From: Candidatus Planktophila versatilis
GTDB taxonomy: Bacteria > Actinomycetota > Actinomycetes > Nanopelagicales > Nanopelagicaceae
Direction of reading: 5' to 3'
Assembly (NCBI RefSeq): GCF_002288105.1
Contig: NZ_CP016774.1
Coordinates: 1,240,001-1,304,000 of the forward strand
DNA: 64,000 bases
In this document: in pieces, positions 1-59,403 of the stretch
Layout of the letters: each line of letters opens with the position of its first letter
Position numbering within the stretch: the stretch's first letter is position 1
Notes under the pieces: model-generated
What the model was told of the DNA's origin: nothing
The model's database searches: none
Seen by the model: only the letters and a program-made list of their open reading frames with translations
Program-made: the position numbers and the translations under genes

Positions 1-1
1 A

Positions 2-865
2 TCGATAGAGATTTTCCGTGAAACGGCTGTGGGTTTCCGTAAACCGGTCATGATGTATTCAATCGGTAAGGATTCGACGGTACTTCTACACCTTGCTCGT
101 AAAGCTTTCTATCCGGCAGCTATTCCATTCCCATTGCTACATATAGATACCACGTGGAAGTTTAAAGAGATGATTGCTTTTAGAGATCGAGTGGTTGCGC
201 AAACCAATTCGAAACTTATTGTGCATACAAATCAAGCTGGCGTGGATGCAAATATCAACCCATTTACTACTGGAATTTCCGAATACACCCGTGTGATGAA
301 GACTGTTGCCCTACGTGAAGCACTTGATTTCCATGGTTTTGATGCTGCCATTGGTGGTTCACGTAGAGATGAAGAGAAGAGCCGGGCGAAAGAGAGAATC
401 TTTAGCGTTCGAGATCCTGGCCATCGTTGGAATCCGCGCGAACAACGCCCTGAACTGTGGAACACATATAACACTCGGCTAGGCCCAGGGCAGACTATGC
501 GCGTCTTTCCAATTTCTGACTGGACCGAAAATGACATTTGGCATTACATCCTGCAGGAGGGCATTGAAGTAAATCCACTGTACTTCGCCAAAGAACGACC
601 AGTAGTCAAACGTGGTGAACAATTAATAATGGTCGATGATGATCGTTACCCCTTGCAAGATGGTGAAACTCCATTTATGAAGCAGGTTCGCTTTCGCACG
701 CTGGGCTGTTATCCACTCACCGCAGCTGTTGAATCCAATGCTCTCACTATTGAGGATGTCGTTGAAGAAGTCTTGCAAGTAAAGCTTAGTGAACGTGCCA
801 CCCGATTAATTGACGGCGATAATGAAGATTCTATGGAGAAGAAGAAGTCCGAGGGGTACTTCTAA
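2..865 (+). CDS. cysD: Sulfate adenylyltransferase subunit 2 (5' partial)
   Basis: CysD is the small ATP-sulfurylase subunit. With CysN it adenylates sulfate to APS in the cytoplasm, the first step of sulfate assimilation. The PP-loop signature SIGKDS follows an in-frame stretch ([18 protein letters not shown]) that runs back to the window edge, so the true start lies outside the window and a GTG at 29 is an internal codon. HLARKAFYP, the CysD core with [15 protein letters not shown], and the C-terminal RxxDxDxxxSMEKKKxEGYF-type tail are all present. The stop overlaps the cysNC start by one base (TAATG), so the two are translationally coupled. The assignment is firm; only the N-terminus is missing. 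Confidence 0.96.
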
Positions 866-2688
866 TGTCCGGTGCAATTGTTCGCCTCTTAACCTGTGGC
901 AGTGTCGATGATGGTAAATCAACTCTCATTGGCCGCCTATTAGTTGAAACAGATAGCATCCCGCACGACACAGTCGGCGCGGCAAGGAAAGTACGTCGCA
1001 CAGGTTCGACTATCCCTGCTGGAGAAATTGACTTCAGCCTTCTGACTGATGGGCTTGAAGCTGAGCGCGAACAAGGAATTACTATCGATGTCGCTTATCG
1101 ATCAATGAATCTTTTGGATGGTAAACGACTAATTATCAGCGATGCTCCAGGCCATGAGCAGTACACACGTAACATGGTGGTTGCAGCATCACGTGCAGAT
1201 ATAGCACTGGTTTTAGTTGATGGAATCAAGGGCGTGCGCACACAGACGTTGCGCCACTTAACAATCTGTTCTTTGATGGGCGTTTCCCGAGTAATTGTTG
1301 CCATCAATAAATTAGATGCTGTCGGTTTTGATAAGAAAGTCTTTGATGACATCTCAGCCGAGATTCAGAAAACTATCGATCGGCTTGAGCTCACAGATGT
1401 TCACATCATCCCGCTGAGTGCGTTGGCGGGCGATAATGTTGTTTTCCGCAGCGAAAATATGAACTGGTATTCAGGAAAAACCCTTATTGAGAGCATCCAA
1501 GACTGGAGCGAACCAGTTGACCATGAAGCACGGGGGTTGATGCGGATTCAGATGATTGCTCGAGCTGAAAATTTTCGCGGGGTTTCAGGAACTGTCCGTC
1601 GTGGAAGTTTCAGTAAAGGTGATGAAGTTACGATTTTTCCGAGCATGCAGAAGGCAAAGATTTCCTCGATAGTTACCTTTAATGAGGAGAGCGAGCACGC
1701 CCCCACTGATTCGGCAGTCACTTTGGTACTAACGCCTGAAGTTGATGCAACCCGTGGAGACATCATTGCCCAGTCAACTGAAGATTTAATACCTTCTGAT
1801 CGCTTAGCTGCCCACATTGTCTGGCTCAATGAAGAACCCCTCATACATAGTCGTTCTTACTTACTGGTGAGTGGCGCAACCACGACCCCGGCAATTGTTA
1901 CAAAAATCCGCCACAAGATTGATGTAAATACGGGTGAACATATCTCTTCAGATGTTCTACAGATGAATGAAATTGGCGATGTTGAAGTAGCCACAGATAT
2001 CCCAGTAGTCATGCGACCTTATACGGATTCGAGAGAATTTGGTAATTTCATTCTTGTCGACCGACTGACCTTAAAAACAGTTGGTGCTGGAATGGTCCGT
2101 CACTCTCTTCGACGCGCCTCGAACGTTACGCACCAGGATTATGAAATAACAAAAGCCCAACGTGGGGTCCAAAAGTCTCAGAAAGCGCGCGTAATTTGGC
2201 TCACCGGTCTTTCAGGTTCAGGTAAGTCAACAATTGCTAATGCGCTAGAGCAACGGCTGTTTGCTTCAGGTGCTCACGCGTATGTTTTAGATGGTGACAA
2301 CTTACGATTAGGCCTAAATATGGATCTCGGATTTACACCAGAAGATCGCGCCGAGAATGTGCGACGAGTATCTGAGGTTGCAAAGCTAATGGTTGATGCT
2401 GGCCTTATTGTCATTACCGCTCTGGTGAGTCCATTTGAGGTCGACCGACAGCGCGCAAAGAGTATCTTTGACGATGGTGAGTTCCTGGAAGTTTTTGTTG
2501 ATACACCAGTTGAAACATGTCGTTCCCGAGATCCAAAAGGTTTATATAAGAAATCTGCTGCTGGACAGATTCCAAACTTCACTGGTGTGGGACAAGACTA
2601 TGAAAGACCTCTCGCTCCAGATTTGCACCTTGATGGAACCGCGTCAGTTGCAGACAATGTGGAGAAAATAATTAAGATTCTGTTATGA
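865..2688 (+). CDS. cysNC: Bifunctional sulfate adenylyltransferase subunit 1 / adenylylsulfate kinase
   Basis: This is a fusion of CysN (GTPase subunit of ATP sulfurylase) and CysC (APS kinase, APS + ATP to PAPS). The GTPase part has the P-loop GSVDDGKST at residues 12-20, the G3 motif DAPGH at 93-97 and NKLD at 148-151, followed by EF-Tu-like beta-barrel domains to about 430. The kinase part starts near 441 with its own P-loop GLSGSGKS at 448-455. At 607 aa it matches the usual length of actinobacterial CysNC. It overlaps cysD by 1 nt and the downstream permease by 4 nt (ATGA), so all three form one operon that delivers PAPS or APS for cysteine synthesis. Confidence 0.96.
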   Translation: MSGAIVRLLTCGSVDDGKSTLIGRLLVETDSIPHDTVGAARKVRRTGSTIPAGEIDFSLLTDGLEAEREQGITIDVAYRSMNLLDGKRLIISDAPGHEQYTRNMVVAASRADIALVLVDGIKGVRTQTLRHLTICSLMGVSRVIVAINKLDAVGFDKKVFDDISAEIQKTIDRLELTDVHIIPLSALAGDNVVFRSENMNWYSGKTLIESIQDWSEPVDHEARGLMRIQMIARAENFRGVSGTVRRGSFSKGDEVTIFPSMQKAKISSIVTFNEESEHAPTDSAVTLVLTPEVDATRGDIIAQSTEDLIPSDRLAAHIVWLNEEPLIHSRSYLLVSGATTTPAIVTKIRHKIDVNTGEHISSDVLQMNEIGDVEVATDIPVVMRPYTDSREFGNFILVDRLTLKTVGAGMVRHSLRRASNVTHQDYEITKAQRGVQKSQKARVIWLTGLSGSGKSTIANALEQRLFASGAHAYVLDGDNLRLGLNMDLGFTPEDRAENVRRVSEVAKLMVDAGLIVITALVSPFEVDRQRAKSIFDDGEFLEVFVDTPVETCRSRDPKGLYKKSAAGQIPNFTGVGQDYERPLAPDLHLDGTASVADNVEKIIKILL

Positions 2689-3440
2689 ATTGGCTTCTCT
2701 TTGCCCTCGTAGGGTCAGCAGCTCAGTTAATTGATGGCTCTCTGGGAATGGGTTTTGGACTCACAAGTTCGACTCTCTTGGTCACGCTAGGGGCATCTGC
2801 AGTGGTTGCCTCTACCGCTGTTCATATCGCTGAAATTGGTACGACTCTCGCATCCGGTGCTTCTCACTGGCATGCTGAGAATATAGATAAGAAGATTCTT
2901 CTCAGGTTGGCTATTCCAGGAGGAATTGGCGCGTTCTTAGGGGCCACATTCCTTACATTTATTGATCTATCTAGTTCAAAGATATTCATTTCCACCCTCT
3001 TACTTTTCTTGGGTTTCTTACTTCTCTATCGCAATGTATTTAAGACCGAACCACAAACTAATTTGTTGGAGATAAAAAATCCGCGTTTTCTCACCTACCT
3101 TGGTTTCACTGGTGGATTTGTTGATGCATCAGGTGGTGGAGGTTGGGGCCCAATTGTTACGCCAACTCTGATGACAACGACAACGACTGAACCTCGTAAA
3201 GTTATCGGAACAGTGAGTGCAGCAGAATTTGTCGTTGCACTTTCTGCTTCTGCCGGATTCTTGGCACAGATTGGGCGCATTGATATTAATTGGTCAACAG
3301 TTGGCGGATTGGCACTTGGTGGAGTCATTGCCGCCCCAGTTGCAGCGCGCCTAGTTGGCCGTTTACCCGCAAAGTATCTTGGAATTATCGTGGCGGTAGG
3401 AATTATTGTTTTGAATGCAATCCAGATAATTCGTGCGTAA
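2685..3440 (+). CDS. TauE/SafE-family membrane permease, sulfur operon
   Basis: This is a 251-aa hydrophobic protein with about eight membrane segments in two repeated halves. Its glycine-rich motifs (DGSLGMGFG near residue 20; GGFVDASGGGGWGP near 145) are typical of the TauE/SafE (DUF81) anion permease family. Members move sulfite, sulfoacetate, sulfonates or possibly sulfate. The start ATG overlaps the cysNC stop by 4 nt, so it is co-translated with the sulfate-activation enzymes. It is therefore probably the sulfate or sulfite transporter of this pathway. Direction and substrate cannot be read from the sequence. No other sulfate transporter is visible in the window. Confidence 0.85.
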   Translation: MNWLLFALVGSAAQLIDGSLGMGFGLTSSTLLVTLGASAVVASTAVHIAEIGTTLASGASHWHAENIDKKILLRLAIPGGIGAFLGATFLTFIDLSSSKIFISTLLLFLGFLLLYRNVFKTEPQTNLLEIKNPRFLTYLGFTGGFVDASGGGGWGPIVTPTLMTTTTTEPRKVIGTVSAAEFVVALSASAGFLAQIGRIDINWSTVGGLALGGVIAAPVAARLVGRLPAKYLGIIVAVGIIVLNAIQIIRA

Positions 3441-3574
3441 AACTCGCTGAAACACGCATTAGTTGCAAGTTTTCACCACTTCATAGATAATTGGGTTGCG
3501 TTCATTCGCAAAACCAAAGGAGAGTACTTCTCAAACGGTTTCTAAATCAGAAACATTTGCCGTACAGCTTTACA

Positions 3575-4981
3575 ATGACTACACAAGCAGCGATCCAATC
3601 GCAACATGCAGCAACACACCGATACGTACCGTCCACATCAACTCCAGTTTCGCCAGAAAAAGTAGCTTCTGTACTTAAGGCTGAATGGGAATTATTCACA
3701 CAAGGCACCAAAGCATCTGAGACTGAGAGCAAGCGGGCATTTAACTCACTGCCACTTGGCGTCACCTCTAGCTTCCAGCACTGGGATCCCTACCCAATCT
3801 CCATCTCATCGGCCAAGGGCGCATATATGACCGATGTCGACGGTCGCCAATTACTCGACCTCTCTATGGGCTTTGGCGCAATGCTCGCCGGCCACCTGAA
3901 CCCAATTGTGATTGAAGAGATTGAAGCCTCCCTGAAACAAGGCATGCTCTTTGTGACTCCCTCCCCAACCTCAACTGATGCAGCAGAGCGAATCTGTAAG
4001 CGCTTTGGAATCGACCAAGTTCGATTTACCAATTCAGGCACCGAATCAACGATGTATGCCGTCCGAGTTGCCCGCTCTGCGACCCAGAAGATGGGCATTC
4101 TAAAAATTGAGGGTGGCTACCACGGTAGCTATGACCCATTTGTAGTTTCTTCCAAGCCACCGGTTGCAGAAGCTGGAGACGCTGAAGAGCCAACTCCTTA
4201 TATTGATTCAAATCTGGTGCCCGGAGATATCTATGTCGTTCCATTTAATAACATTGAAGCCCTCGAGCGTATGTTTGCAAGCAACGCAAATAAAATTGCC
4301 TGCTTCATCGTCGAGCCTGTTCTAGAGAACATTGCAATTGTTCTTCCTGATGCAGGTTATCTCGAGCGAGTTCGTGAACTCTGCGATCAATACAACGTCA
4401 TCCTGATCTTTGATGAAGTGAAAACTGGACTCACAGCGGGTGCACACGGTGCATCTGCTCGACTCGGCGTAAAGCCAGATCTCATCACTCTTGCAAAATC
4501 TATAGGTGGCGGACTTCCACTTGCCGCCTTCGGTGGCAAGAAGAAATACATGGACTTTGTCAGCAACGGAAAAATGGCACACTTTGGAACATTTAACGGT
4601 AACCCGCTTGCAATGGCGGGTGTCCGTGCCATAGATCGTATTTGTACCGATGAGGCACTCGCAGCAGCTGAAGAGTTGAACCTGCAAGCACTAACTCGCA
4701 TCGGTCAGATTATCGATGAATACCAACTTCCAGCACATACTGTCGGTTTTGGTGTGAAGGGCTGCGTTACCTGGTCAACAACACCAGTTCGCAACTATCG
4801 TGACTACAAAGCAACTGACTTTGGTATCGCAGAAGCACATTGGTTATTCGCCCTCAACCGCGGAATCATCACTCCGCCAGGACTTGATGAGCAATGGTTA
4901 ATTTCACTGGCACATGGCCAGGCTGAAATTGATTTACTTGTTGAAGATTTCCGAGAGTTTGCTAAAGCAATAAGAGCGTAA
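3575..4981 (+). CDS. Class III aminotransferase, glutamate-1-semialdehyde aminomutase-like
   Basis: This PLP enzyme of fold type I has the family core NSGTESTMYAVRVAR, a DEVKTG motif (Asp binding the PLP ring nitrogen) and the Schiff-base lysine in TLAKSIGGGLPLAAFGG. The whole resembles HemL-type aminomutases and related ethanolamine- or beta-amino-acid-type transaminases. I chose ATG 3575 (468 aa). The longer frame from TTG 3491 adds 28 residues with no family character. There is no good Shine-Dalgarno before 3575, so it may be leaderless. A true heme-pathway HemL normally sits with other hem genes, which are absent here, so the substrate is uncertain. Its last 23 codons are partly duplicated at 7933-8004 across the tRNA-Arg insert. 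Confidence 0.8.
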   Translation: MTTQAAIQSQHAATHRYVPSTSTPVSPEKVASVLKAEWELFTQGTKASETESKRAFNSLPLGVTSSFQHWDPYPISISSAKGAYMTDVDGRQLLDLSMGFGAMLAGHLNPIVIEEIEASLKQGMLFVTPSPTSTDAAERICKRFGIDQVRFTNSGTESTMYAVRVARSATQKMGILKIEGGYHGSYDPFVVSSKPPVAEAGDAEEPTPYIDSNLVPGDIYVVPFNNIEALERMFASNANKIACFIVEPVLENIAIVLPDAGYLERVRELCDQYNVILIFDEVKTGLTAGAHGASARLGVKPDLITLAKSIGGGLPLAAFGGKKKYMDFVSNGKMAHFGTFNGNPLAMAGVRAIDRICTDEALAAAEELNLQALTRIGQIIDEYQLPAHTVGFGVKGCVTWSTTPVRNYRDYKATDFGIAEAHWLFALNRGIITPPGLDEQWLISLAHGQAEIDLLVEDFREFAKAIRA

Positions 4982-4988
4982 AGAAGAA

Positions 4989-5019
4989 AAGCCCCAAGTG
5001 TGAAAGGCACTCGAGGCTT
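4989..5019 (-). terminator. Hairpin terminator left behind at the left island end
   Basis: The hairpin has stem AAGCC/GGCTT with an inner AGTG/CACT stem and loop TGAAAGG. Read on the minus strand it is followed by CTTTTCTTCTTT, so it is a Rho-independent terminator facing left. It would have ended the tRNA-Arg transcript before the insert separated them. A second copy with compensating stem changes lies at 8012-8042. It may also terminate the aminotransferase mRNA from the other side. Confidence 0.65.
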
Positions 5020-5068
5020 AACTTGTGCGCGCGAAGGGATTCGAACCCCTAACCTTCTGATCCGTAGT
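5016..5068. repeat. Left attachment repeat (attL-like), 3' half of tRNA-Arg(ACG)
   Basis: These 53 bases are identical to 8039-8091. Bases 5026-5068 equal the last 43 nt of tRNA-Arg(ACG) on the minus strand, from the discriminator through the T-arm to the anticodon. The similarity stops abruptly after CCGTAGT in the anticodon loop, where the intact gene continues with CAGATG. This copy is a truncated, non-functional tRNA. Such a repeat of a tRNA 3' end is the classical scar of integration by a tyrosine recombinase. Confidence 0.85.
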
Positions 5069-5393
5069 TTCTCTTCACGCTGGTCTCAGCGTATCTCTAA
5101 GTATCTAGTTCTTCGTTCTTTTGCCGCAATTAAGCGTGGAGACGCTCTCACTGGTTCTCCAAGTTTCAGGCTTAATCTGTGTGATTGAAAGCAATTTGAA
5201 AGCAAAGATTTAAACAAAGTTTTTTGCTATCTGAGTGGAGAAGTATCTCCACCCCAATGAGTAGAAACATGAATGCAACATAGCAGGTGCATTCTCAACC
5301 ATCGGACCAGAGTTCGATTTGTTGCTCACAGGACACGACGACAAATACCTCAACAGGCTTGGATGAATATCCAACTTTTCCAGATGCAACAGG
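5069..5393. other. Non-coding stretch inside the island, left end
   Basis: I see no convincing gene in these 325 bases. Just inside the repeat lies the perfect inverted repeat ACGCTG-GTCT-CAGCGT (5077-5092). There is a tandem direct repeat at 5185-5205 and another hairpin GTGGAGA-AGTA-TCTCCAC (5235-5252). The density of small repeats next to the junction would fit recombinase or accessory-protein binding sites, but this is speculative. Confidence 0.4.
5185..5205. repeat. Tandem direct repeat TTGAAAGCAA x2
   Basis: TTGAAAGCAA occurs at 5185-5194 and again at 5196-5205, an 11-bp period, about 120 bp inside the left attachment repeat. Short direct repeats at this distance are typical of integrase arm-type sites, but no integrase is encoded here. 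Function is unknown. Confidence 0.45.
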
Positions 5394-6776
5394 GTGGAAT
5401 ACAATCATTGCATGATACAAAACCTAGTTTTAGGCGCTGGGCCCGTAGGGATAGTAGTTACAGAGCGACTCGCGGCAGCAGGCTGCGAAGTAGTAACTGT
5501 CGATTCGGGGCAAGGATTGCCAGCGCTTCGCGCGTCAACGGTTGTAAATTCAAATGTCGACTTCAAAAATGTACGTGAAATGCCAAGCCTTTTTGGTGGG
5601 TCAAAATTTCATTGGGGTGGTGCGTGCATGGGATTTCCATTGAAAGACCTCAGTCGTCCCTCACCCGATTCTCTAATGTGGTCAAATATGGAGCCTGGCT
5701 ACAAAATTGTTTCCGAGATGCTTGAAATCAATGGATTCGATTTCATAAAGAATGTCCCGGTTGAGAATAATCCATCTAGCGATTCAAATTTTGATTCCCA
5801 AGTATTCGAACTTTGCTACGCATACGTTGTAAAAGATTCAAAAATGAAGAAAAATTCTAAAAACTTAAAGTCAAGCCCAGGTGTCAAATTTATAAAGAAC
5901 GCAATTGCGCTGAGTTTAGAGGATTCAGGCGAATTTGTAACTGTGCGCATGATTCGATTCGGCGAAACAGATGAGTTTGAAGTTCGCGCCAAACGTGTCT
6001 TCGTGTGCTTAGGAACCATTGAGACTACAAGACTTCTAATGAATTCCGTGAAATCGACGGAAAATGGGGATTTAGCAGCCCTTGGTAGAAATCTGTCAGA
6101 TCACCTCACTATTAAATTAGGATCTGTTAAATTCTCGGGATTGTTTCAATGGGCGCCACTAATTGATTATTCGGAAAATCAGGATGGCTCGCGCCTTTGG
6201 CCTAGATGGTCTATTTCAAATCAGCCCAAAGAATTTGACTCTCTTCGAGGTTTTATTTATTTTACTAATATAAACCACGGTGGGCCTCGAGTATCCTTCC
6301 GAAATCCACGTGGTGACTCTGAATTTTATGGGATGAAGAGTAACGGTGACTCAAGTAAAGGGTCTGTCGAAGCTGACATAAACCTATTTATTGAATCGCC
6401 AAACAGTCCGGAGAGAGGTATCAGTCTGGAAACGGACGAAGGCTTCACTCCTAGAATTCCAGGAATTAGAATCGATTTTGACATCTCATCTGATGAATGG
6501 AATTTAATTATTCGATACGGAAAGTGGTTACTCTCTTGTATTGATGCTATGCCGGGAGTGGAAAACGTTGTTCAAAGGCAAGGCCTGAATATTGAAGATC
6601 TGCAGACAAGTAATCACCCCAGTGGCACCCACCCGGCAGAAATTTCTTCATTGCCAAACGTGTATCCAATCAGTGCTGGGATCTTACCTCGGGCTTCTGC
6701 GACCCACCCCACCATGGCGACGCTTGCTATAGCGGTTGTTACCGTAGATAAGCTGCTCGGTCGGAAGCACTTATAA
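5394..6776 (+). CDS. GMC-like FAD-dependent oxidoreductase (island cargo)
   Basis: The N-terminal FAD-binding Rossmann motif LGAGPVGIVVTERLAAAG is followed by the conserved GGSKFHWGGACMGFP stretch. The C-terminal block HPSGTHPAE...YPISAGILPRASATHPTM corresponds to the GMC_oxred_C region, with its active-site histidine and FAD-contacting tail. This is a cytoplasmic-type oxidoreductase of about 460 aa without a signal peptide. GMC relatives oxidise alcohol or sugar hydroxyls, and family members of this size also occur in surface polysaccharide loci. The GTG at 5394 and the ATG at 5412 are both possible starts; GGGTGG at 5392-5397 suits the ATG better. It converges on the next gene with 27 bp between them. 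Substrate is unknown. Confidence 0.75.
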   Translation: MEYNHCMIQNLVLGAGPVGIVVTERLAAAGCEVVTVDSGQGLPALRASTVVNSNVDFKNVREMPSLFGGSKFHWGGACMGFPLKDLSRPSPDSLMWSNMEPGYKIVSEMLEINGFDFIKNVPVENNPSSDSNFDSQVFELCYAYVVKDSKMKKNSKNLKSSPGVKFIKNAIALSLEDSGEFVTVRMIRFGETDEFEVRAKRVFVCLGTIETTRLLMNSVKSTENGDLAALGRNLSDHLTIKLGSVKFSGLFQWAPLIDYSENQDGSRLWPRWSISNQPKEFDSLRGFIYFTNINHGGPRVSFRNPRGDSEFYGMKSNGDSSKGSVEADINLFIESPNSPERGISLETDEGFTPRIPGIRIDFDISSDEWNLIIRYGKWLLSCIDAMPGVENVVQRQGLNIEDLQTSNHPSGTHPAEISSLPNVYPISAGILPRASATHPTMATLAIAVVTVDKLLGRKHL

Positions 6777-6803
6777 GATTTTGGACCTGACCCTAGTTTT
6801 GAG

Positions 6804-7778
6804 TTAATTCTTAAAGTTGCGTATGAATCGAATACCTTTTATGAGCATTTTTCCCCCTGGTACGGAAACAATTAGCTTTCGAGCTTTTCGAAAAATCCGC
6901 GGGATAATCAAATGAGATTGATCCCAGCAGGAAAGTTGTTCGAAAACAATTGCTTCATCAATTGAAGGAAATGCCATTTCCTTGGAAAAAATCAACTTGC
7001 GGAGGCCAAGCATTAAGCCAATTCGTTTCCACTCATCCATGCTGCTCAGTGGCGAGCTCCGAGTAAGGGAGCCATCTGATCCAATTGATTCAAAAGATTC
7101 CCCTAGCACGCCTTTTGCGTAGTCTACTGTACGTGTAGAAACAAAATTGGAATCGCGCACGAGCCTACCAAAAGTTGAAAGCACAAAACCACCAGCCTTA
7201 TTTGGATTCTTACTTCCCCAAATAATATACGCACGTAACCGAGAATCAAGAAAAATCCAGGGGAAGGAGTCCGAAAGCGACCATGGGGAAATGCGAAACA
7301 ATTTTCGGTTAGCGACATAAGACATCAAGGCAGTCCCGTGGTAGTAGTAAAGCCCGTGTTTAATGAATACAACCGCCGGTTTAAGGTCTTTTATGTCGTC
7401 AAGCCAGGGAATTAACACAGAGTCCTCGAGGACATTAAATTGAATCTGATAAAGCCATTCGAGTGATTTTAACTCGGATTGAATCATTGAAATGGGAGTG
7501 TCAACAAGAATCGAGGCTGGCTTACCTTTAGTTAGAATTGTGGACAACATTTGAAAAACTTCTCCTGTTGGGAGACTGCAGAGCAGTATGGAATCGGAAA
7601 TAAAATCTTGGGGTAATTCCGAAATGTTCGAGAAACATTCAATCGCTTCATGTCCCGGGACGCTACTTGGTTTTCTCCTCACAATAGCAATGTCTTCAGG
7701 GCTTACTCCACAACCAATGAGTGCTGGAAGTACGTCATTTTGAACTCGCCAACCAGCGCCCAGCACGAGTATTTTCAT
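6804..7778 (-). CDS. Rossmann-fold protein, divergent Gfo/Idh/MocA-like (island cargo)
   Basis: This 324-aa protein starts with a dinucleotide-binding motif VLGAGWRVQNDVLPAL, close to the GxGxxxxxxLPAL opening of Gfo/Idh/MocA dehydrogenases. The usual EKP motif is replaced by VDTPIS, which keeps an acidic residue and the proline but not the lysine. The C-terminal half has no pattern I recognise and ends in a basic tail (RFIRNFKN). It faces the GMC-like oxidoreductase tail to tail inside the tRNA-Arg insert, so the two were probably gained together. A redox or sugar-nucleotide role is a guess; lack of the lysine may mean a non-catalytic or altered enzyme. Confidence 0.55.
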   Translation of the reverse strand: MKILVLGAGWRVQNDVLPALIGCGVSPEDIAIVRRKPSSVPGHEAIECFSNISELPQDFISDSILLCSLPTGEVFQMLSTILTKGKPASILVDTPISMIQSELKSLEWLYQIQFNVLEDSVLIPWLDDIKDLKPAVVFIKHGLYYYHGTALMSYVANRKLFRISPWSLSDSFPWIFLDSRLRAYIIWGSKNPNKAGGFVLSTFGRLVRDSNFVSTRTVDYAKGVLGESFESIGSDGSLTRSSPLSSMDEWKRIGLMLGLRKLIFSKEMAFPSIDEAIVFEQLSCWDQSHLIIPRIFRKARKLIVSVPGGKMLIKGIRFIRNFKN

Positions 7779-7932
7779 TACGCTACACCCACTAACCTTA
7801 AAAGTATTTCGTAGAGTAACTGCATAATTTGTCTCCCGAGATTTGATTTATTTTGCGTCACACCAGATAGTTAGAGTTTCACAGATGAGCGAAGTCTCAT
7901 ATGCTCAGCATAGTCATTTCAGAATACCTAAG

Positions 7933-8004
7933 GCACATCGCTTGCCTGAAATTGATTTACTTGTTGAGAATTTCCACAAGTTTGCGAATGCATTCAGAGG
8001 TTGA
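7933..8004 (+). pseudogene. Relic of an aminotransferase C-terminus
   Basis: Read in frame to the TGA at 8002, these 24 codons give AHRLPEIDLLVENFHKFANA followed by FRG. The aminotransferase ending at 4981 closes with AHGQAEIDLLVEDFREFAKA and IRA. Fourteen of 23 residues match and the position relative to the tRNA is the same. Upstream of 7933 the similarity disappears. It is a stranded gene tail from a related but diverged genome, brought with or left by the tRNA-Arg insert. Confidence 0.75.
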
Positions 8005-8011
8005 AAAAGAA

Positions 8012-8042
8012 AAGCCCCCGGTGTGAAAGGCACCGATAGCTT
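8012..8042 (-). terminator. Terminator of tRNA-Arg(ACG)
   Basis: Stem AAGC/GCTT with inner CGGTG/CACCG and loop TGAAAGG is followed on the minus strand by CTTTTCTTTTT. It lies 7 nt beyond the tRNA 3' end, so it ends the tRNA-Arg transcript. Compared with the copy at 4989-5019 the inner stem changed from AGTG/CACT to GGTG/CACC on both sides, a covariation that supports a working RNA hairpin. Confidence 0.75.
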
Positions 8043-8091
8043 AACTTGTGCGCGCGAAGGGATTCGAACCCCTAACCTTCTGATCCGTAGT
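8039..8091. repeat. Right attachment repeat (attR-like)
   Basis: This is a 53-bp perfect copy of 5016-5068. It contains the 3' 43 nt of the intact tRNA-Arg and 10 nt of flanking sequence up to the terminator stem. Identity ends at the same anticodon-loop base as in the left copy. The intact tRNA is therefore rebuilt at this junction. Confidence 0.85.
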
Positions 8092-8121
8092 CAGATGCTC
8101 TATCCGTTGAGCTACGCACGC
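8049..8121 (-). tRNA. tRNA-Arg(ACG)
   Basis: The 73-nt cloverleaf has acceptor GCGTGCG/CGCGCGC, T-arm AGGGG-TTCGAAT-CCCTT and anticodon loop CTACGGA, giving anticodon ACG (reads CGN arginine codons after A34 deamination). Discriminator is A and CCA is not encoded. It is the integration target of the 3-kb insert on its 3' side. A possible -10 (TAGTAT on the minus strand, 8149-8154) lies upstream. Confidence 0.95.
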
Positions 8122-8204
8122 CTATTAAATTGTGTATTGCGAAAACGAATACTACAGGCTTTTCTCGCTACTGAAAAACGCTTAAAACGAGCAGAAATTA
8201 ATGC

Positions 8205-9644
<1,440 letters not shown>

Positions 9645-10919
9645 CTACAGCCTACCGAGTCTTAAGAGCTCCTCGCGATCAACGGCCTTGCGACGCGGTT
9701 TACCCAGCGGTTCACCTGCTGCTACTTCAGCCTGATTTATTACCTGCCAATGAGCTTGGGTGACAACTCTGTTATGTGTAATTACATCGGTGATATCACC
9801 CGCGCTCTTGGGAGTAGTTAAATCATCGACTAGTAATTTCATGACATCTGCTGCATCTGATTTATTGGTACCAATCACACCTGACGGACCACGCTTAGCC
9901 CAACCAACAACATAGACGTTCTCATGTACTCGACCATCAGTATTTACTACCTTGCCCTTCTCATAGGGCACACCCGCTAGCGCTGTTGCTTCATAACCAA
10001 TGGCGGTAATCACGAGGCCGCACTTGATGCTAAATATCTCATCACTGCCCGTCTTCTGAAATACAACCTCTTCAACGCGGCCAGCGCCTTTAATCTCAAT
10101 AGGGGTGGCTAGAAATTGGAAGGTAATCGTGCGCTCGTGGTTGGTCGCTTCTTTTTCAGCAATCAACAACATGGCATCAAGATTGCTCTTCACATCTTTT
10201 GCAGGTTCATCTCCTGCACGCGAAATAGCATCAGAAATATCTGACTTATTCATTATCACATTGGTATGTTCAAGTTTTGGCAGATCACGTAGCTCAGGTG
10301 ATGTGAAGGCGGCATGCTCAGCTCCGCGGCGAGCGCTGATGACTACCTTGCGCACGGCGCTTGCTTTAAATGAATCAATTGCGTGATCTGCAGTATCAGT
10401 TGGATCAAGTTCACTGGGTTCAAGCGCCAAGATGCGCGCCACATCCATGGCCACATTGCCAGCGCCGATGACAACGGCTGTATCGCAACTCAAATCAATA
10501 GTGTGATCTTTGAAATCTGGGTGGGAGTTATACCAAGGCACGAAGGTGGCCGCAGACATGGAGCCTGGTAGATCTTCTCCAGGAATGCCAAGCTTCTTGC
10601 CAACTGCAGACCCGGTAGCGATTATGACCGCGTCGTACTTCTCTTTGAGTTGTTCAATCGTCAGATCTGAGCCGAGTTCAACATTTGCAAATAGCCTAAA
10701 GCCTGGTTCCACAGCAATTTTCTCAAATACTTTCGATACGGTCTTAATTTTTGGATGATCCGGGGCCACACCACTACGCACTAAACCCCAAGGCGTTGGT
10801 AAACGTTCAATCATGTCAATAGAAAATTGAAGTTCATCGCTCTGCAAGTTTTGCAGAGCTTGGGCTGCAAAGTAGCCAGCAGGACCCGCGCCGACGATTG
10901 CTACCTTAAATCTTGACAT
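9645..10919 (-). CDS. fprA: Ferredoxin/adrenodoxin-type NADP reductase
   Basis: This FAD/NADP flavoprotein is of the adrenodoxin-reductase family that moves electrons between NADPH and ferredoxin. The FAD motif VGAGPAGYFAAQAL is at residues 9-22, the family block PTPWGLVRSGVAPDHPKIK at 42-60, and the NADP motif IGAGNVAMDVARILA near 152. The C-terminal GWAKRGPSGVIGTNKSDA is the hallmark GWxxxGPxGxIGxN sequence. At 424 aa it is slightly shorter than the mycobacterial FprA. It is probably the first gene of a two-gene operon with guaB1, perhaps feeding reducing power to Fe-S or P450-type partners elsewhere. Confidence 0.92.
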   Translation of the reverse strand: MSRFKVAIVGAGPAGYFAAQALQNLQSDELQFSIDMIERLPTPWGLVRSGVAPDHPKIKTVSKVFEKIAVEPGFRLFANVELGSDLTIEQLKEKYDAVIIATGSAVGKKLGIPGEDLPGSMSAATFVPWYNSHPDFKDHTIDLSCDTAVVIGAGNVAMDVARILALEPSELDPTDTADHAIDSFKASAVRKVVISARRGAEHAAFTSPELRDLPKLEHTNVIMNKSDISDAISRAGDEPAKDVKSNLDAMLLIAEKEATNHERTITFQFLATPIEIKGAGRVEEVVFQKTGSDEIFSIKCGLVITAIGYEATALAGVPYEKGKVVNTDGRVHENVYVVGWAKRGPSGVIGTNKSDAADVMKLLVDDLTTPKSAGDITDVITHNRVVTQAHWQVINQAEVAAGEPLGKPRRKAVDREELLRLGRL

Positions 10920-10941
10920 CGATGCCCAGTTTCTTACTCAG

Positions 10942-11979
10942 TTAGGAAATTCGCAAATTTGCACGGTGGGATTTAGTAGGGGCGGTAGAAGAACGAACTA
11001 CTAAACGTGGCTGGAATTCAATGCGTTGATGAACATGGCGCTCGGGGTTTTCGCACTCTGAAATAATCAATTCAGCCGCTGCAAAACCGAGTTCATAAGC
11101 GGGTTGTGATATTGAAGTGAGGGGAACGTTGGCGCTGCCCGCAAAATCTATATCGTCATATCCGATAACAGAGACATCTTCTGGAACCGCAATATTTTTT
11201 TCGCGCAAGGCGCGGATGGCACCGAGTGCGATCAAGTCATTGCCACAGATGATTCCTGTGAAATCAACACCTGATTCAATCTTCTTCATCATCGCATCGT
11301 ATGCATTTGAAGCGCTCATAGAATCCAGGCGAAGTTCCATAATCTGAGGGAGTTGGTTAGCCGGGATTTCTTTCATAGAATCTCTAATTCCGGTGTTGCG
11401 ATCGGCAACTTGTGGAATATCTTCACTTCCGGTGAGCAATAAAATTTTGCGGTGCCCTAGTTCGTGTAGGTGAGTGAGCGCCAGCGAACCACCATATGAA
11501 TCGTTTACTGCAACGCTACATGCTTGCAAACCGAGCGCAGGACGATCAACTAGAGCCAAGCGAATTCCCTTTTCGGCAACTTTTGCCAGAGCCCTAATAG
11601 TCTCTCTGGCTGGTGTAATCAAAATTCCCTCTACATTTTGAGCGCTGAGTACCTCTAAATACTGGCTCTCTTTATCAGTGCTCTCATCTGTATTACATAA
11701 AATCACAACATACTTTGCGGCAAAGGCAGCATCGTTTACACCCATGGCTAGCGCGGTGAAGAATGGATTAGAAATGTCAGGGACAATTAATCCAATGACG
11801 CGATTTCGTCCAGCGCGCAGATTGCGGGCGGATGCATTCGGAACAAAGCCCATTTCTTCAATAACTTTTTGCACTTTACGCAGAGTCAGTGGTGCCAATA
11901 CCTCTGGGCGATTAATCGCATTAGAGACGGTGCCCAAAGAGACGCCGGCGGCTTTGGCCACATCTCTGATACTTGCCAC
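10942..11979 (-). CDS. LacI-family regulator, probably of the rhamnose operon
   Basis: The N-terminal helix-turn-helix is ASIRDVAKAAGVSLGTVSNAINRPEVL, followed by a periplasmic-binding-protein-like sensor domain (GLIVPDISNPFFTAL; VIGYDDIDFA). I placed the start at GTG 11979, six bases after AGGGAG, rather than at 12003. The product is 345 aa. It is divergent from rhaM, and the gap contains two CTTnAAnCGnTTnAAG-type palindromes, the shape expected for LacI-family sites. The obvious inference is repression of the rha genes and of itself, released by rhamnose or a catabolite. The effector is not provable from sequence. Confidence 0.85.
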   Translation of the reverse strand: MASIRDVAKAAGVSLGTVSNAINRPEVLAPLTLRKVQKVIEEMGFVPNASARNLRAGRNRVIGLIVPDISNPFFTALAMGVNDAAFAAKYVVILCNTDESTDKESQYLEVLSAQNVEGILITPARETIRALAKVAEKGIRLALVDRPALGLQACSVAVNDSYGGSLALTHLHELGHRKILLLTGSEDIPQVADRNTGIRDSMKEIPANQLPQIMELRLDSMSASNAYDAMMKKIESGVDFTGIICGNDLIALGAIRALREKNIAVPEDVSVIGYDDIDFAGSANVPLTSISQPAYELGFAAAELIISECENPERHVHQRIEFQPRLVVRSSTAPTKSHRANLRIS

Positions 11980-12016
11980 AAAGATCTCCCTAGAATTGAA
12001 CAAAATCTATTGAACA

Positions 12017-12032
12017 CTTGAAACGATACAGG
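12017..12032. promoter_or_regulatory. Candidate rha operator 1 (imperfect)
   Basis: CTTGAAACGATACAGG has the left half CTTnAA and central CG of operator 2 but a degenerate right half. It lies 37 bp from the regulator start, where it could mediate autoregulation. Confidence 0.45.
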
Positions 12033-12088
12033 ATTTAGAGCGAGTCTGGCTACTTTGCCTTTTGAACAGATTCTCTTTTCGCGCTCAA

Positions 12089-12117
12089 TTGACGCCCTTA
12101 AACTCAATGAATAGCCT
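12089..12117 (+). promoter_or_regulatory. Probable promoter of the rha operon
   Basis: A -35 box TTGACG (12089-12094) and a -10 box TAGCCT (12112-12117) are separated by 17 bp. Transcription would start near 12124, just before operator 2. Confidence 0.6.
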
Positions 12118-12127
12118 TAGCTAACTG

Positions 12128-12143
12128 CTTAAAACGGTTCAAG
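12128..12143. promoter_or_regulatory. rha operator 2, overlapping the rhaM ribosome-binding site
   Basis: CTTAAAACGGTTCAAG is a palindrome of the form CTTnAAnCGnTTnAAG, with all non-n positions symmetric. It begins a few bases after the predicted transcription start, and its last bases form part of the AAGGAG ribosome-binding site of rhaM (12141-12146). A bound LacI-type protein here would block transcription start directly. Confidence 0.65.
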
Positions 12144-12152
12144 GAGAATTCT

Positions 12153-12476
12153 ATGGAGAGAGTCGCATTTCGTCTCAAAGTACGTAAAGAGATGATGAAT
12201 GAGTATGTGCGCAGACATACAGAAGTCTGGCCCGAGATGCTCGACGCTCTTCGCTCTACTGGTTGGACCAACTACTCCATCTTCCTCGATCGTGCTGATG
12301 GCTCACTTTTTGGATATTTCGAAACACTTAATTTAGAGGCGGCGCTAGCAGGGATGGGAAAGACTGAGATTAACGAGAAATGGCAGAAAGATATGGCACC
12401 ATTCTTTGAAAATCTTGAAGGCGTTAATGCAGATCAGGGATTTATCAAGCTTGAGCAAGTCTTTTTTCTTCAATAA
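12153..12476 (+). CDS. rhaM: L-rhamnose mutarotase
   Basis: This 107-aa alpha+beta barrel protein of the RhaM/RhaU family interconverts alpha- and beta-L-rhamnose for the isomerase. The N-terminal RVAFRLKVRKEMMNEYVRRH, the family motif HTEVWPEML, and the NYSIFLD and FGYFE strands are present. AAGGAG sits 6 nt before the ATG. It is first in the rha operon, 33 bp ahead of rhaI. Confidence 0.92.
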   Translation: MERVAFRLKVRKEMMNEYVRRHTEVWPEMLDALRSTGWTNYSIFLDRADGSLFGYFETLNLEAALAGMGKTEINEKWQKDMAPFFENLEGVNADQGFIKLEQVFFLQ

Positions 12477-12509
12477 ATTCTATTACATCCACTACTAGAG
12501 GAGCACGGC

Positions 12510-13676
12510 ATGGCATCAAAGGCGGACGTTAAGAAAGTTCTTGACCGACTACAAATCGAAACTCCATCATGGGCATACGGAAATTCTGGAACACGATTTA
12601 AAGTTTTTGGTCAACCGGGTGTTCCTCGTGACCCTTTTGAAAAAGTAGAAGATGCCGCCCAGGTACATAAGTACACCGGTGCTGCTCACAGCGTTGCCCT
12701 ACACATTCCTTGGGACAAGGTTGAGGATTACGCAAAATTTGCCAAGCACGCAAAAGATCTAGGTGTGGTGCTTGGAACAATTAACTCCAATACCTTCCAA
12801 GACGATGATTACAAGCTGGGGTCAGTCTGTCATCCCGATAAGAAGATTCGCGAGAAAGCAGTCCGCCACCTTCTAGAGTGCATTGAAATCATGGATATCA
12901 CTGGGTCACAAGATTTGAAGTTGTGGTTTGCAGATGGCACCAACTATCCGGGCCAAGACAACATCAGCTCTCGTCAAGATCGTTTATCTGAATCACTTCA
13001 CGAAACTTATAGTCACCTCAAAGGCAATCAGAGAATGCTTGTTGAATACAAGTTCTTTGAGCCTTCTTTCTACACCACTGATATTCCTGACTGGGGAACT
13101 TCCTACGCTCACTGTCTACAACTTGGCGAGCGCGCAATGGTCTGCGTTGATACTGGACACCATGCTCCTGGAACAAATATTGAATTCATCGTGGCCTTCT
13201 TACTTCGAGCAAAGAAGCTTGGTGCATTCGATTTCAATTCACGTTTCTACGCTGATGATGATTTGATTGTTGGAGCCGCAGATCCATTCCAGTTATTCCG
13301 CATTCTGCACGAAGTCAACATCAACGGCGGATTCGATGTCGGAACGCCCGTTTCATTTGTGCTAGATCAATGCCACAACATCGAGGCGAAAATTCCTGGG
13401 CAAATTCGCTCAATTCTCAATGTTCAAGAGGCTGCTGCAAAGGCGCTATTAGTTGACCAGGGTGCACTTGAAGCTGCGCAAGCTGCAGGTGATGTGCTTG
13501 AGGCAAACGGTGTCCTGATGGATGCCTATAACACTGATGTCCGTCCACTTCTTGAAGAGTGGCGCAGCGATAAGGGAATTGATCCCAATCCTATGAAGGC
13601 ATTTAAAGCCTCTGGTTATCTAAAGAAAATTGCTGATTCACGAGTCGGCGGCAATCAAGCTGGGTGGGGTGCATAA
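12510..13676 (+). CDS. rhaI: L-rhamnose isomerase
   Basis: RhaI converts L-rhamnose to L-rhamnulose using divalent metals in a TIM barrel. The protein (388 aa) is of the RhaI class found in Rhizobium and Pseudomonas stutzeri, not the E. coli RhaA class. It includes the metal-site pieces VEYKFFEPSFY, CVDTGHHAPGTNIEF, NSRFYADDDL and VLDQCHNIEAK. GAGG precedes the ATG. The end overlaps the next gene by 13 nt. It acts between rhaM and rhaB in the pathway encoded by this operon. Confidence 0.92.
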   Translation: MASKADVKKVLDRLQIETPSWAYGNSGTRFKVFGQPGVPRDPFEKVEDAAQVHKYTGAAHSVALHIPWDKVEDYAKFAKHAKDLGVVLGTINSNTFQDDDYKLGSVCHPDKKIREKAVRHLLECIEIMDITGSQDLKLWFADGTNYPGQDNISSRQDRLSESLHETYSHLKGNQRMLVEYKFFEPSFYTTDIPDWGTSYAHCLQLGERAMVCVDTGHHAPGTNIEFIVAFLLRAKKLGAFDFNSRFYADDDLIVGAADPFQLFRILHEVNINGGFDVGTPVSFVLDQCHNIEAKIPGQIRSILNVQEAAAKALLVDQGALEAAQAAGDVLEANGVLMDAYNTDVRPLLEEWRSDKGIDPNPMKAFKASGYLKKIADSRVGGNQAGWGA

Positions 13677-15727
13677 TTAAAAAGCTATCTGAGTTAACTC
13701 CTGCAGTTAACGAACTGATTTCTCGTTCTAATCGTTTAGGTGCCGACCCAAAAGTAACTAACTATGCCGGTGGCAATACCTCTGCGAAGGCAACGATTAC
13801 TGATCCAATTTCCGGTAAGCCAACCTCGCTTATCTTTGTCAAGGGTTCCGGTGGTGATCTCGGTACTCTCAAAGAAGAAGGAATAGCAGTTTTATATACC
13901 GATAAAGTTCATGAGCTTAAAAATGTTTATCCTGGTGAGCAACGCGAGGATGAAATGGTTGCACTATTTGACTACTGCCTCTTTGGTAAAGGTGGAGCAG
14001 CGCCGAGCATTGATACCTCGATGCACGGTTTGGTTGATAAGTTACATGTTGATCATTTACATCCAGATTCAATCATTGCCTTTGCCACCTCCGCCGATGG
14101 TCCTGCTATCACCAAAAAATGTTTTGGGGATGAAATTCTCTGGGTGGATTGGCGCCGACCTGGGTTTCAACTTGGATTGGATATCGCAAAGATTGCCGCA
14201 GAGAACCCGAACGCTAAAGGGTGCATTCTTGGTGGCCATGGCTTAACAACATGGGCTGATACTTCTGATGAGTGCGAGAAGCGCTCACTTGATGCCATAA
14301 AGAAGGCAGAAGATTTCATTAAGGCAAATGGCAAATCAGAACCATTTGGTGCAAGTATCGCTAAGTACAAGGCGCTTGCGGAAGCAGAACGTAGGGCACG
14401 CGCCGCACAACTCTCTCCAATACTGCGAGGCGTGGCTTCACAGGATGCACGCATGGTTGGTCACTTCACCGACTCAGATGTAGTTTTAGATTTCATCGCC
14501 AGCCAGTCACTGCAAAAACTCGCTGCCTTAGGCACATCATGTCCTGATCACTTCTTACGTACCAAGGTCTCCCCTATGGTCCTTGATACAGAGCCAGGTG
14601 CTGATCTTGAGCAAGTAACCGCTCGTATTCGCACTTTGCATGAGGAGTATCGCGCGAGTTACTCGGCTTACTACAACCGTCATGCAACCAAGGAATCTCC
14701 GGCAATACGTGGGGCAGATCCACTAATTATTCTGGTTCCAGGAATCGGCATGTTTTCTTACGGCAAAGATAAGCAGACAGCTCGTGTTGCAGGAGAGTTT
14801 TATGTCAACGCCATCAATGTGATGCGTGGAGCTGAAGCTCTCTCAACATATGCACCAATCTCAGAACTCGAAAAGTTTCGCATCGAATACTGGGATCTTG
14901 AAGAAGCAAAGCTTCGTCGCATGCCTAAGCCAAAGGCACTTGCCGGACAAATCGCAATTGTGACAGGTGGTGCATCAGGAATCGGACGCGCAATTGTTCA
15001 GCGCTACTTTGATGAGGGTGCTTGTGTTGCAATTGCAGACCGCGATCTAGAAGGTGCAAAGAAGCTCATAGCTGAAATGGGTAATTCTGAGCGATTACTC
15101 GCCGTGGGTGTCGATGTCACACTTGAAGATCAAGTTGCTGCTGCAGTAAATGCCACAACACTGGCATTCGGTGGAATAGATATCTTGGTCAACAATGCCG
15201 GGCTCTCACTCTCTAAATCTTTAGTTGATACAACTGTTAGTGACTGGGATCTTCAACATAATGTGATGGCTCGTGGTTCATTCTTATTCTCACGCGAAGT
15301 TGCAAAGGCAATGATTGTGCAGAAGATGGCTGGAAATATTCTCTACATTGCTTCAAAGAATGCCGTCTTTGCCGGTCCTAACAATGTTGCATACGGCGCG
15401 ACCAAGGCAGATCAAGCTCATCAAGTGAGACTGCTAGCTGCTGAGCTCGGTGAGTATGGAATTCGGGTTAATGGAATTAACCCAGACGGTGTTGTGCAAG
15501 GTTCTGGAATTTTCGCTAGTGGATGGGGCGCAAATCGCGCTGCCGTCTATGGCGTTGAAGAAGAGAAGCTTGGTGCGTTCTATGCCCAGCGCAGCATCTT
15601 AAAACTTGAGGTCCTTCCATCACACATTGCTGCAGCGGCATTTGCATTTGTTGCAGGAGATTTACCACTGACAACAGGGTCACATATCCCGGTTGATAGC
15701 GGTGTAGCGAGTGCATTCCTGCGCTAA
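13664..15727 (+). CDS. rhaE: Bifunctional rhamnulose-1-phosphate aldolase / lactaldehyde dehydrogenase
   Basis: This is a two-domain protein of 687 aa. Residues 1-430 form a class II aldolase/adducin-type domain (NYAGGNTSAKA, FVKGSGGDLGTL, GHGLTTWADT) that would split L-rhamnulose-1-phosphate into DHAP and L-lactaldehyde. Residues 430-687 are a short-chain dehydrogenase (VTGGASGIGRAI, NNAG, YGATKADQ) that would oxidise or reduce lactaldehyde. The same fusion is known in rha operons of alpha-proteobacteria, Bacillus and Streptomyces. The start GTG 13664 lies inside rhaI, and no better start codon exists close by, so coupling is likely. The symbol is used loosely, since names differ among organisms. 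Confidence 0.9.
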   Translation: MGCIIKKLSELTPAVNELISRSNRLGADPKVTNYAGGNTSAKATITDPISGKPTSLIFVKGSGGDLGTLKEEGIAVLYTDKVHELKNVYPGEQREDEMVALFDYCLFGKGGAAPSIDTSMHGLVDKLHVDHLHPDSIIAFATSADGPAITKKCFGDEILWVDWRRPGFQLGLDIAKIAAENPNAKGCILGGHGLTTWADTSDECEKRSLDAIKKAEDFIKANGKSEPFGASIAKYKALAEAERRARAAQLSPILRGVASQDARMVGHFTDSDVVLDFIASQSLQKLAALGTSCPDHFLRTKVSPMVLDTEPGADLEQVTARIRTLHEEYRASYSAYYNRHATKESPAIRGADPLIILVPGIGMFSYGKDKQTARVAGEFYVNAINVMRGAEALSTYAPISELEKFRIEYWDLEEAKLRRMPKPKALAGQIAIVTGGASGIGRAIVQRYFDEGACVAIADRDLEGAKKLIAEMGNSERLLAVGVDVTLEDQVAAAVNATTLAFGGIDILVNNAGLSLSKSLVDTTVSDWDLQHNVMARGSFLFSREVAKAMIVQKMAGNILYIASKNAVFAGPNNVAYGATKADQAHQVRLLAAELGEYGIRVNGINPDGVVQGSGIFASGWGANRAAVYGVEEEKLGAFYAQRSILKLEVLPSHIAAAAFAFVAGDLPLTTGSHIPVDSGVASAFLR

Positions 15728-15729
15728 CT

Positions 15730-17130: not shown

Positions 17131-17142
17131 GCCCGCTGCCTC

Positions 17143-17148
17143 TAGACT
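17143..17148 (+). promoter_or_regulatory. Extended -10 box for a leaderless start
   Basis: TAGACT is followed by 7 nt and then the ATG at 17156, with no Shine-Dalgarno. Transcription would begin at or next to the A of the start codon. The same TAnnnT-N6-8-ATG layout recurs at 41963, 51670 (minus), 51686, 54662, 56202 and 36007. Confidence 0.5.
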
Positions 17149-17155
17149 AAGCAAC

Positions 17156-17998: not shown

Positions 17999-18040
17999 CC
18001 ATTCTTCGACCAGTAAAACCGATGCGCTTTCTAGAAAAAC

Positions 18041-58791: not shown

Positions 58792-58803
58792 GCGCTTAAA
58801 GAA

Positions 58804-59316: not shown

Positions 59317-59317
59317 G

Positions 59318-59390: not shown

Positions 59391-59403
59391 GTATTAGAAC
59401 GGG

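What the first reader, a model, noticed from the sequence alone, without database searches (positions are those of the whole stretch)
5016..8091. tRNA-Arg mini-island with 53-bp att-like repeats and no recombinase
A 53-bp perfect repeat of the tRNA-Arg(ACG) 3' half flanks 3 kb holding only two cargo genes. Integration at tRNA 3' ends is the rule for tyrosine-recombinase elements, yet no integrase is present. It may be a satellite mobilised in trans or a decayed or hypervariable site used repeatedly for cargo exchange.
Basis: partly seen in the sequence, partly recalled or inferred. Interest (0 to 1): 0.7.

Follow-up and report, generated by a model that had tools for sequence, protein, structure and literature searches.

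The report
Integrase-less DNA insert at tRNA-Arg
A small piece of foreign DNA carrying two genes sits in an arginine tRNA gene of a small-genome actinobacterium; it looks like a crippled relative of mobile elements that repeatedly insert at this same spot in related bacteria, which is a known kind of thing in a new place.

Summary
A perfect 53-bp repeat (5016-5068 = 8039-8091), the end of a 160-bp repeat at about 86%, brackets a 3,023-bp insert in tRNA-Arg(ACG). Two relatives, G088 (same species) and G151 (about 94% identical), have the empty site. The left junction lies in the anticodon loop, as with tyrosine-integrase insertion. No integrase or recognisable relic is inside.

In the genus the site is a recurrent hotspot: at least 15 modules in 14 genomes, 0.65-7.6 kb, mostly different cargo; 5 carry a tyrosine integrase (one truncated), 10 do not. 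Some integrase-less modules share both ends with integrase-bearing ones. The window insert keeps one authentic end of 'family II': its left arm has only two clear matches elsewhere in 135 genomes, both beside a displaced tRNA-Arg copy, and its paired arm repeat occurs five times in those genomes, only at these three modules. One of them (G156) encodes an arm-binding integrase. The insert's other end is replaced by aminotransferase 3' end plus terminator from another genome of the genus. Best reading: a decayed, hybrid cis-mobilisable element at an additive tRNA hotspot. Whether its last step was site-specific or homologous recombination is open; interspecies homologous exchange beside this tRNA is also seen. 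Known kind, new locus and lineage.

The parts
3491..4981 (+). class-III aminotransferase, native left neighbour
   Evidence: PF00202, E 1.4e-60; lies in a stretch 97.7% identical to G088
4909..5024 (+). native 3' end of the aminotransferase gene and its terminator region (outer flank, copy 1 of the 160-bp repeat)
   Evidence: mostly agrees with the empty site of G088 where copy 2 differs
5016..5068 (.). exact 53-bp repeat, left copy; 5025-5068 is the displaced tRNA-Arg 3' half (attachment core)
5069..5221 (+). end A arm of the insert, family II
   Evidence: 70-77% identical to G026 and G156 at the same place, depending on the stretch
5186..5205 (+). paired arm repeat TGAAAGCAA-NN-TGAAAGCAA
   Evidence: same offset from the core in G156 and G026b; 5 occurrences in 135 genomes
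5394..6776 (+). cargo 1: GMC-like oxidoreductase, 460 aa
   Evidence: PF00732 E 8.9e-5, 22.8 bits, just under the cut-off of 23; weak matches to MftG models
6804..7778 (-). cargo 2: 324-aa protein, perhaps a Rossmann-fold oxidoreductase (my reading of an N-terminal glycine-rich motif; no database match)
   Evidence: no Pfam, NCBIfam or PDB-sequence match
7932..8047 (+). imported second copy of aminotransferase 3' end plus terminator, 81% to native; the terminator part is 98% identical to that of several other genomes of the genus
8039..8091 (.). exact 53-bp repeat, right copy; 8048-8091 is the core inside the intact tRNA
8048..8121 (-). intact tRNA-Arg(ACG)
   Evidence: ARAGORN
8092..8391 (.). 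tract right of the core that is 98-100% identical to G128, a genome otherwise about 80% identical here; shared with G088
8205..9641 (-). IMP dehydrogenase-like gene, native right neighbour
   Evidence: PF00478, E 6.9e-100

Best explanation
The 3,023-bp insert is an integrative element without its own integrase (a decayed, hybrid cis-mobilisable element) that entered tRNA-Arg(ACG) by recombination at the 44-nt tRNA 3' half. Shown: precise insertion against empty sites in two relatives; junction at the anticodon loop; repeated use of this site by integrase-bearing and integrase-less modules in the genus; one authentic arm with its paired repeat shared with an integrase-encoding element. Inferred: a tyrosine integrase of the G156 type (379 aa, with arm-binding domain), supplied by another element, joined the cores of circle and chromosome, restoring the tRNA with the incoming 3' half and pushing the old 3' half and terminator outward. 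Inferred: before arrival, in another species of the genus, the integrase and right end had been lost and replaced by that species' aminotransferase 3' end and terminator, probably by homologous or illegitimate recombination with an empty-site chromosome. The insert now has one arm only and is probably stuck unless another element integrates beside it.
For: Empty sites in G088 and G151, with copy 1 native-like and copy 2 foreign. Modules with an integrase between displaced core and the same tRNA: G018, G110, G103 (truncated), G060, G156. End A of the window has two clear matches elsewhere in 135 genomes, G026 (9.5e-12) and G156 (1.5e-9), each beside a displaced tRNA-Arg core. The paired repeat occurs 5 times in 135 genomes: both ends of G156, both ends of G026b, one end of the window insert; the backwards control gives 0. 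Offsets 162 and 173 from the core start are identical in all three. G026b (655 bp) keeps both ends and the last codons of the G156 integrase, so internal deletion does occur. Insert GC is 0.430 against a mean of 0.468, sd 0.010; 1 of 1,221 same-size windows in 50-bp steps is as low. The tRNA-Arg 3' half also matches phage records, e.g. Corynebacterium phage Poushou, 91.8% over about 51 bp.
Against: The right end is not of family II, so this insert is not a clean member of that family. End A is only 70-77% identical to its relatives. No such integrase was found in the window's own genome: it has three PF00589 hits, two about 304-309 aa (taken as Xer by size, not tested) and one of about 400 aa beside tRNA-Leu. 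An integrase of the G156 type was seen in one module only. Homologous exchange between species beside this tRNA is real: window 8092-8391 is 98-100% identical to G128, which is about 80% identical elsewhere, and this tract is shared with G088 and runs further there; several 100-bp stretches of the right neighbour are only 88-94% identical to G088. So homologous import of the insert cannot be excluded. No excision or transfer was observed.
Confidence: 0.62

Rival explanations
1. The insert came by plain homologous recombination: DNA of another species, already holding an island at its tRNA-Arg, was taken up and crossed over in the terminator/tRNA on the left and the tRNA or its right flank on the right. 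Site-specific insertion happened only in the donor lineage.
For: The right end carries 116 bp like another genome's chromosome. A tract right of the tRNA matches G128 at 98-100%, so interspecies crossing-over does happen at this very place. Diverged patches lie further right.
Against: The G128-like tract is shared with G088, which has no insert, so it need not have come with the insert. G128 is not a good match for copy 2 (only 92% over about 38 bp of terminator). Left of 5025 the flank is native-like.
Confidence: 0.28
2. A functional satellite mobilised in trans today by a resident integrase.
For: Integrase-less modules with both ends exist at this site (G105, G026a, G155, G026b), and two genomes with integrase-less modules, G073 and G155, hold family I integrase homologues elsewhere.
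Against: The window insert lacks the second arm; its own genome has no family I integrase at E 1e-20 and its only other integrase-sized hit sits at tRNA-Leu.
Confidence: 0.08
3. A chance repeat or local tandem duplication of the aminotransferase end and tRNA, with the two genes arising in between.
For: The 160-bp repeat includes chromosomal sequence, as a duplication would.
Against: Copy 2 is 81% to native where same-species identity is about 98%; the GMC-like cargo is absent from 134 other genus genomes; GC is unusually low; the arm matches modules elsewhere.
Confidence: 0.02

Closest known systems
CIMEs (cis-mobilisable elements) of streptococci, derived from ICEs/IMEs by deletion (PMC7563491, passages seen)
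   Same: att sites kept, integration genes lost; sits at a gene end where integrase-bearing relatives also insert; tandem modules seen in G026
   Different: I did not search the relatives for conjugation genes; the window insert has one hybrid end; the host is an actinobacterium with a 1.33-Mb genome
Dehalococcoides ssrA genomic islands (PMC3146451, passages seen)
   Same: tandem islands bounded by direct repeats of an RNA-gene 3' end; 15 islands there lack an integration module
   Different: serine recombinases at the tmRNA gene there; tyrosine integrases at tRNA-Arg here
Additive flexible genomic islands with tRNA-Lys 3' repeats in Ca. Methylopumilus (PMC10872708, passages seen)
   Same: small-genome bacterium; recurring tRNA 3'-end repeats with variable cargo, 330 bp to 42 kb
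   Different: another tRNA and phylum; arms matched to integrases were not in the passages seen
Tycheposons of Prochlorococcus (original paper not held; known from PMC10872708 passages and recall)
   Same: tRNA sites, tyrosine recombinase, cargo
   Different: 4-200 kb in the passage seen; this insert is 3 kb and has no recombinase

Membership tests
tRNA-targeted integrative element (tyrosine integrase type) | direct repeat of tRNA 3' part at both ends, intact tRNA restored | tested here: met
tRNA-targeted integrative element (tyrosine integrase type) | empty site in a close relative | tested here: met
   G088; G151
tRNA-targeted integrative element (tyrosine integrase type) | integrase gene inside | tested here: not met
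   best tblastn E 0.31
CIME | flanked by att sites, without recombination or transfer genes | tested here: met
   repeats; only two long genes, neither matching a recombinase, relaxase or transfer family in Pfam or NCBIfam
CIME | derived by deletion from an element with an integrase | tested here: inconclusive
   one end shared with G156; the other end is chromosomal
CIME | can be mobilised by accretion with a related element | not testable with these tools
   tandem modules of two end families seen in G026; no excision data
Family II module (G156 type) defined here | both ends with the paired TGAAAGCAA repeat | tested here: not met
   end A has it, end B does not
Tycheposon | tyrosine recombinase with cargo at a tRNA, 4-200 kb | tested here: not met
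   no recombinase, 3 kb

The most novel reading that the evidence does not exclude
In this genus tRNA-Arg(ACG) works as a cassette platform: small units with conserved ends (roughly 100 bp and 70 bp within a subgroup of family I) and freely swapped cargo, many without an integrase, are exchanged between species by recombinases encoded on other elements, giving an ordered array rather like an integron with a tRNA as the entry site. The window insert would be one spent cassette of a second such family.
Probability: 0.2. Interest if true: 0.7.

Novelty: new member of a known kind. Interest (0 to 1): 0.42.

Why it matters
Bacteria with genomes this small have little spare DNA, so where they keep variable genes matters. 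This locus is one such entry site, with arms and integrases that can be named and tested. It suggests two ways in which integrase-less cargo units arise: internal deletion (G026b) and replacement of one end by chromosomal DNA (this insert). Cargo found in modules at the site elsewhere in the genus includes a GmrSD-type nuclease domain (G105), a NucS-like nuclease domain (G018), an HSP20 (G073) and an MscS-type channel (G139).

Tried and rejected
Exact core in viruses: the 43-bp core has 0 exact hits in IMG/VR; less exact matches exist in 31 phage records, 8 of them listed. Origin of the cargo: the GMC-like protein finds no relative in genome contigs (close relatives only), in 393 other genomes of a class sample at 1e-8 or in 134 other genus genomes; in plasmids only two Rhizobium records at 25% identity. 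The second cargo protein gives nothing in IMG/VR and was not searched in genomes. Integrase relic inside the insert: none. Family II right end inside the insert: only short matches, the best being the arm repeats of end A. Source of copy 2 of the aminotransferase end: best matches G151 82%, G088 81%, own copy 81%, so the donor is not identified. Integrases I and II in IMG/VR: only distant relatives, three loci each. Paired repeat in IMG/VR: 4 contigs, about chance level by my rough estimate, not followed. tRNAs within about 1.5 kb of family I integrase homologues elsewhere: 1 of 10 loci scanned has any (L189, tRNA-Lys and tRNA-His; L177 among the ten has longer flanks). Papers on tRNA islands in Planktophila or Nanopelagicales: three searches listed none on this locus, but only 8-12 titles of many were shown and I opened no acI genome paper (one asked for is not held), so absence from print is not claimed.

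Limits. The 100 fetched loci were picked because a tRNA-Arg copy or second copy was seen, so counts are not a random sample. The module count is a lower bound: searches also list partial copies (for example in G114, G152, G030, G079, G142, G143) that I did not fetch or that lie at contig ends, and weak short ones in G060, G099 and G010 that fell outside the core scan. The integrase scan of all modules used five integrases of the genus; Pfam was run only on main reading frames of most modules, not on the 245-aa frame of G009. Three modules (G009, G069, G139) have the core repeat but ends of neither family, apart from short end A matches of G009 to G145, G110 and G026a. Fourteen of 73 loci with at least 3 kb have neither a displaced core nor the usual terminator next to the tRNA and are unexplained.
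Full report
What is in the window. The window is bases 1,240,001-1,304,000 of a single-contig 1.33-Mb genome. One intact tRNA-Arg(acg) lies at 8048-8121, minus strand. A perfect 53-bp repeat, 5016-5068 and 8039-8091, brackets two long genes. It is the end of a 160-bp repeat at 85-86% that also covers the 3' end of the left neighbour, a class-III aminotransferase (PF00202), and its terminator region. The right neighbour is an IMP dehydrogenase-like gene. The genome tool names no genus. One member, G018, has a contig of the same length (133,802) and the same integrase position as record AQUA01000002.1, actinobacterium SCGC AAA278-O22. That this is the freshwater acI/Planktophila group is my recall; the taxonomy tool gives only unclassified Actinomycetes.

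The empty sites. G088, labelled same species, aligns with window 1-5068 at 97.7% and with 7932-18548 at 97.8% and holds a single copy of the 160 bp. In a three-way alignment the left copy mostly agrees with G088 where the two copies differ, and the right copy mostly does not, over 7932-8047. G151 shows the same: window 4258-5068 (94.6%) and 7932-10907 (93.7%) overlap on one copy. The left border of the insert is in the anticodon loop, the crossover place that I recall for one class of tRNA-specific tyrosine integrases. Insert GC is 0.430; 1 of 1,221 same-size windows is as low (mean 0.468, sd 0.010).

The cargo. The 460-aa protein is GMC-like, just under the Pfam cut-off, with weak MftG matches. 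The 324-aa protein has no match in Pfam, NCBIfam or PDB sequences. The first is found in 1 of 135 genus genomes and 1 of 394 class genomes, in both cases the window's own, and has no relative found in genome contigs.

The site is a hotspot. The tRNA-Arg query was run on 101 genomes and the other 34 of the genus. I fetched 100 loci around hits (not a random choice) and scanned them with the window for the core. At least fifteen modules in 14 genomes have a displaced tRNA 3' half on one side and the intact tRNA, or in G026a the next core, on the other: the window 3,023 bp, G018 5,676, G073 1,852, G105 5,006, G103 5,176, G060 7,449, G026a 1,322, G026b 655, G009 991, G110 6,320, G069 748, G155 2,593, G145 1,051, G139 1,004, G156 7,606. 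Of loci with at least 6 kb on the 3' side of the tRNA, 12 of 60 have a displaced core; with at least 8 kb, 11 of 55. In G026 two modules of different end families stand in tandem.

Integrases. Five of 15 modules encode a tyrosine integrase: G018 (251 aa), G110 (248 aa), G103 (200 aa, truncated), G060 (405 aa), G156 (379 aa); in ten none was found. Pfam supports G018 and G156, the latter with integrase, SAM-like and arm-binding domains beside a DUF3631 protein and an HTH_17 protein; NCBIfam recombinase models match G060 below their cut-offs. G110 and G103 are 82% and 86% identical to G018. That family is in 11 of 135 genomes at E 1e-20, not in the window's genome.

Two families of ends. Family I, end A (right of the displaced core): G018/G105/G103, G073/G155/G145 and G026a/G110 are each alike over roughly 100 bp or more, and the three subgroups share about 37-51 bp at 74-84% or better. 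Family I, end B (left of the tRNA): G018, G103, G105 and G155 share 66-70 bp, G026a and G110 share 72 bp, and across them 27-32 bp. So integrase-less G105 has both ends of integrase-bearing G018, and integrase-less G026a both ends of integrase-bearing G110; G155 shares end B with G018 closely and end A over 37 bp. Family II: end A is shared by the window, G026b and G156; end B by G026b and G156 only. G026b keeps the final codons of the G156 integrase, so it looks like an internal-deletion derivative.

The window's place. Searching 135 genomes with window 5069-5400 gives, besides itself, two clear hits, G026 (9.5e-12) and G156 (1.5e-9), and three short ones at E 0.002-0.009 in G061, G062 and G140 (no tRNA found near these three). 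Both clear hits lie next to a displaced tRNA-Arg core. A pair of TGAAAGCAA repeats 11 bp apart begins 162 and 173 bases from the core start in all three. As a pattern it occurs five times in 135 genomes: twice in G026, twice in G156, once in the window genome; the backwards control gives none. G026b and G156 have a second pair near the tRNA; the window does not. There it has the aminotransferase 3' end (81% to native) and a terminator 98% identical to that of several other genomes. Of the 13 loci with a displaced core tested, it alone has the usual terminator next to the tRNA.

Homologous exchange beside the tRNA. Window 8092-8391 is 98-100% identical to G128, which is about 80% identical over the wider region; G088 shares this tract and in it the likeness runs on to about 8571. 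Several 100-bp stretches further right are only 88-94% identical to G088. So DNA of other species has crossed over here. Because G088 has the tract but no insert, the tract need not have come with the insert.

How it most likely works. Shown: precise insertion at a core used repeatedly by integrase elements, one authentic arm, no integrase. Inferred: an integrase of the G156 type, from elsewhere, joined the circle to the tRNA; the circle was itself a hybrid whose right end had been overwritten by chromosomal DNA of another species. Whether the last step into this genome was site-specific or homologous is open; I favour site-specific (0.62 against 0.28).

Known or new. The pattern matches CIMEs (PMC7563491, passages), Dehalococcoides ssrA islands, 15 of which lack an integration module (PMC3146451, passages), and additive islands with tRNA-Lys repeats in Methylopumilus (PMC10872708, passages). 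I therefore call it a new member of a known kind. The most novel reading left open is a cassette platform with conserved ends and integrases acting in trans.

Noticed in passing
L086 9484-10817 (window genome, C1 about 135,480-136,820): A second island candidate: a 401-aa tyrosine integrase beside tRNA-Leu(TAA), with a zinc-finger-repeat protein and a small HTH-looking protein nearby (by eye, like those of the G110 module); G088 has only two PF00589 hits against three here.
   Followed up: partly
window 8092-8391 and L164 (G128): A tract beside the tRNA is 98-100% identical to a genome that is about 80% identical elsewhere: recent exchange between species, shared with G088.
   Followed up: partly
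L066 (G105 module), also G103, G155, G026a, G110: Several family I modules share short repeated segments inside the cargo; some of the secreted-looking proteins end in a similar lysine-rich motif (by eye).
   Followed up: partly
L189 (G014) 1501-2408: A family I integrase homologue sits beside tRNA-Lys(ctt), suggesting a change of target tRNA within the family.
   Followed up: no
L097/L169 (G087), L099/L170 (G066), L102/L137 (G096), L103/L138 (G116): These draft genomes break at this tRNA-Arg, with a full copy near the end of each of two contigs, which could mean mixed insert states in the population.
   Followed up: no
window 58713-59409: ARAGORN reports a tmRNA overlapping tRNA-Ala and tRNA-Ile; probably a false call.
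   Followed up: no
Corynebacterium phage Poushou MF197383.2 27157-27207 and other phage records: The tRNA-Arg 3' half region matches 31 phage records (8 listed) and may be an attP core in some of them.
   Followed up: no
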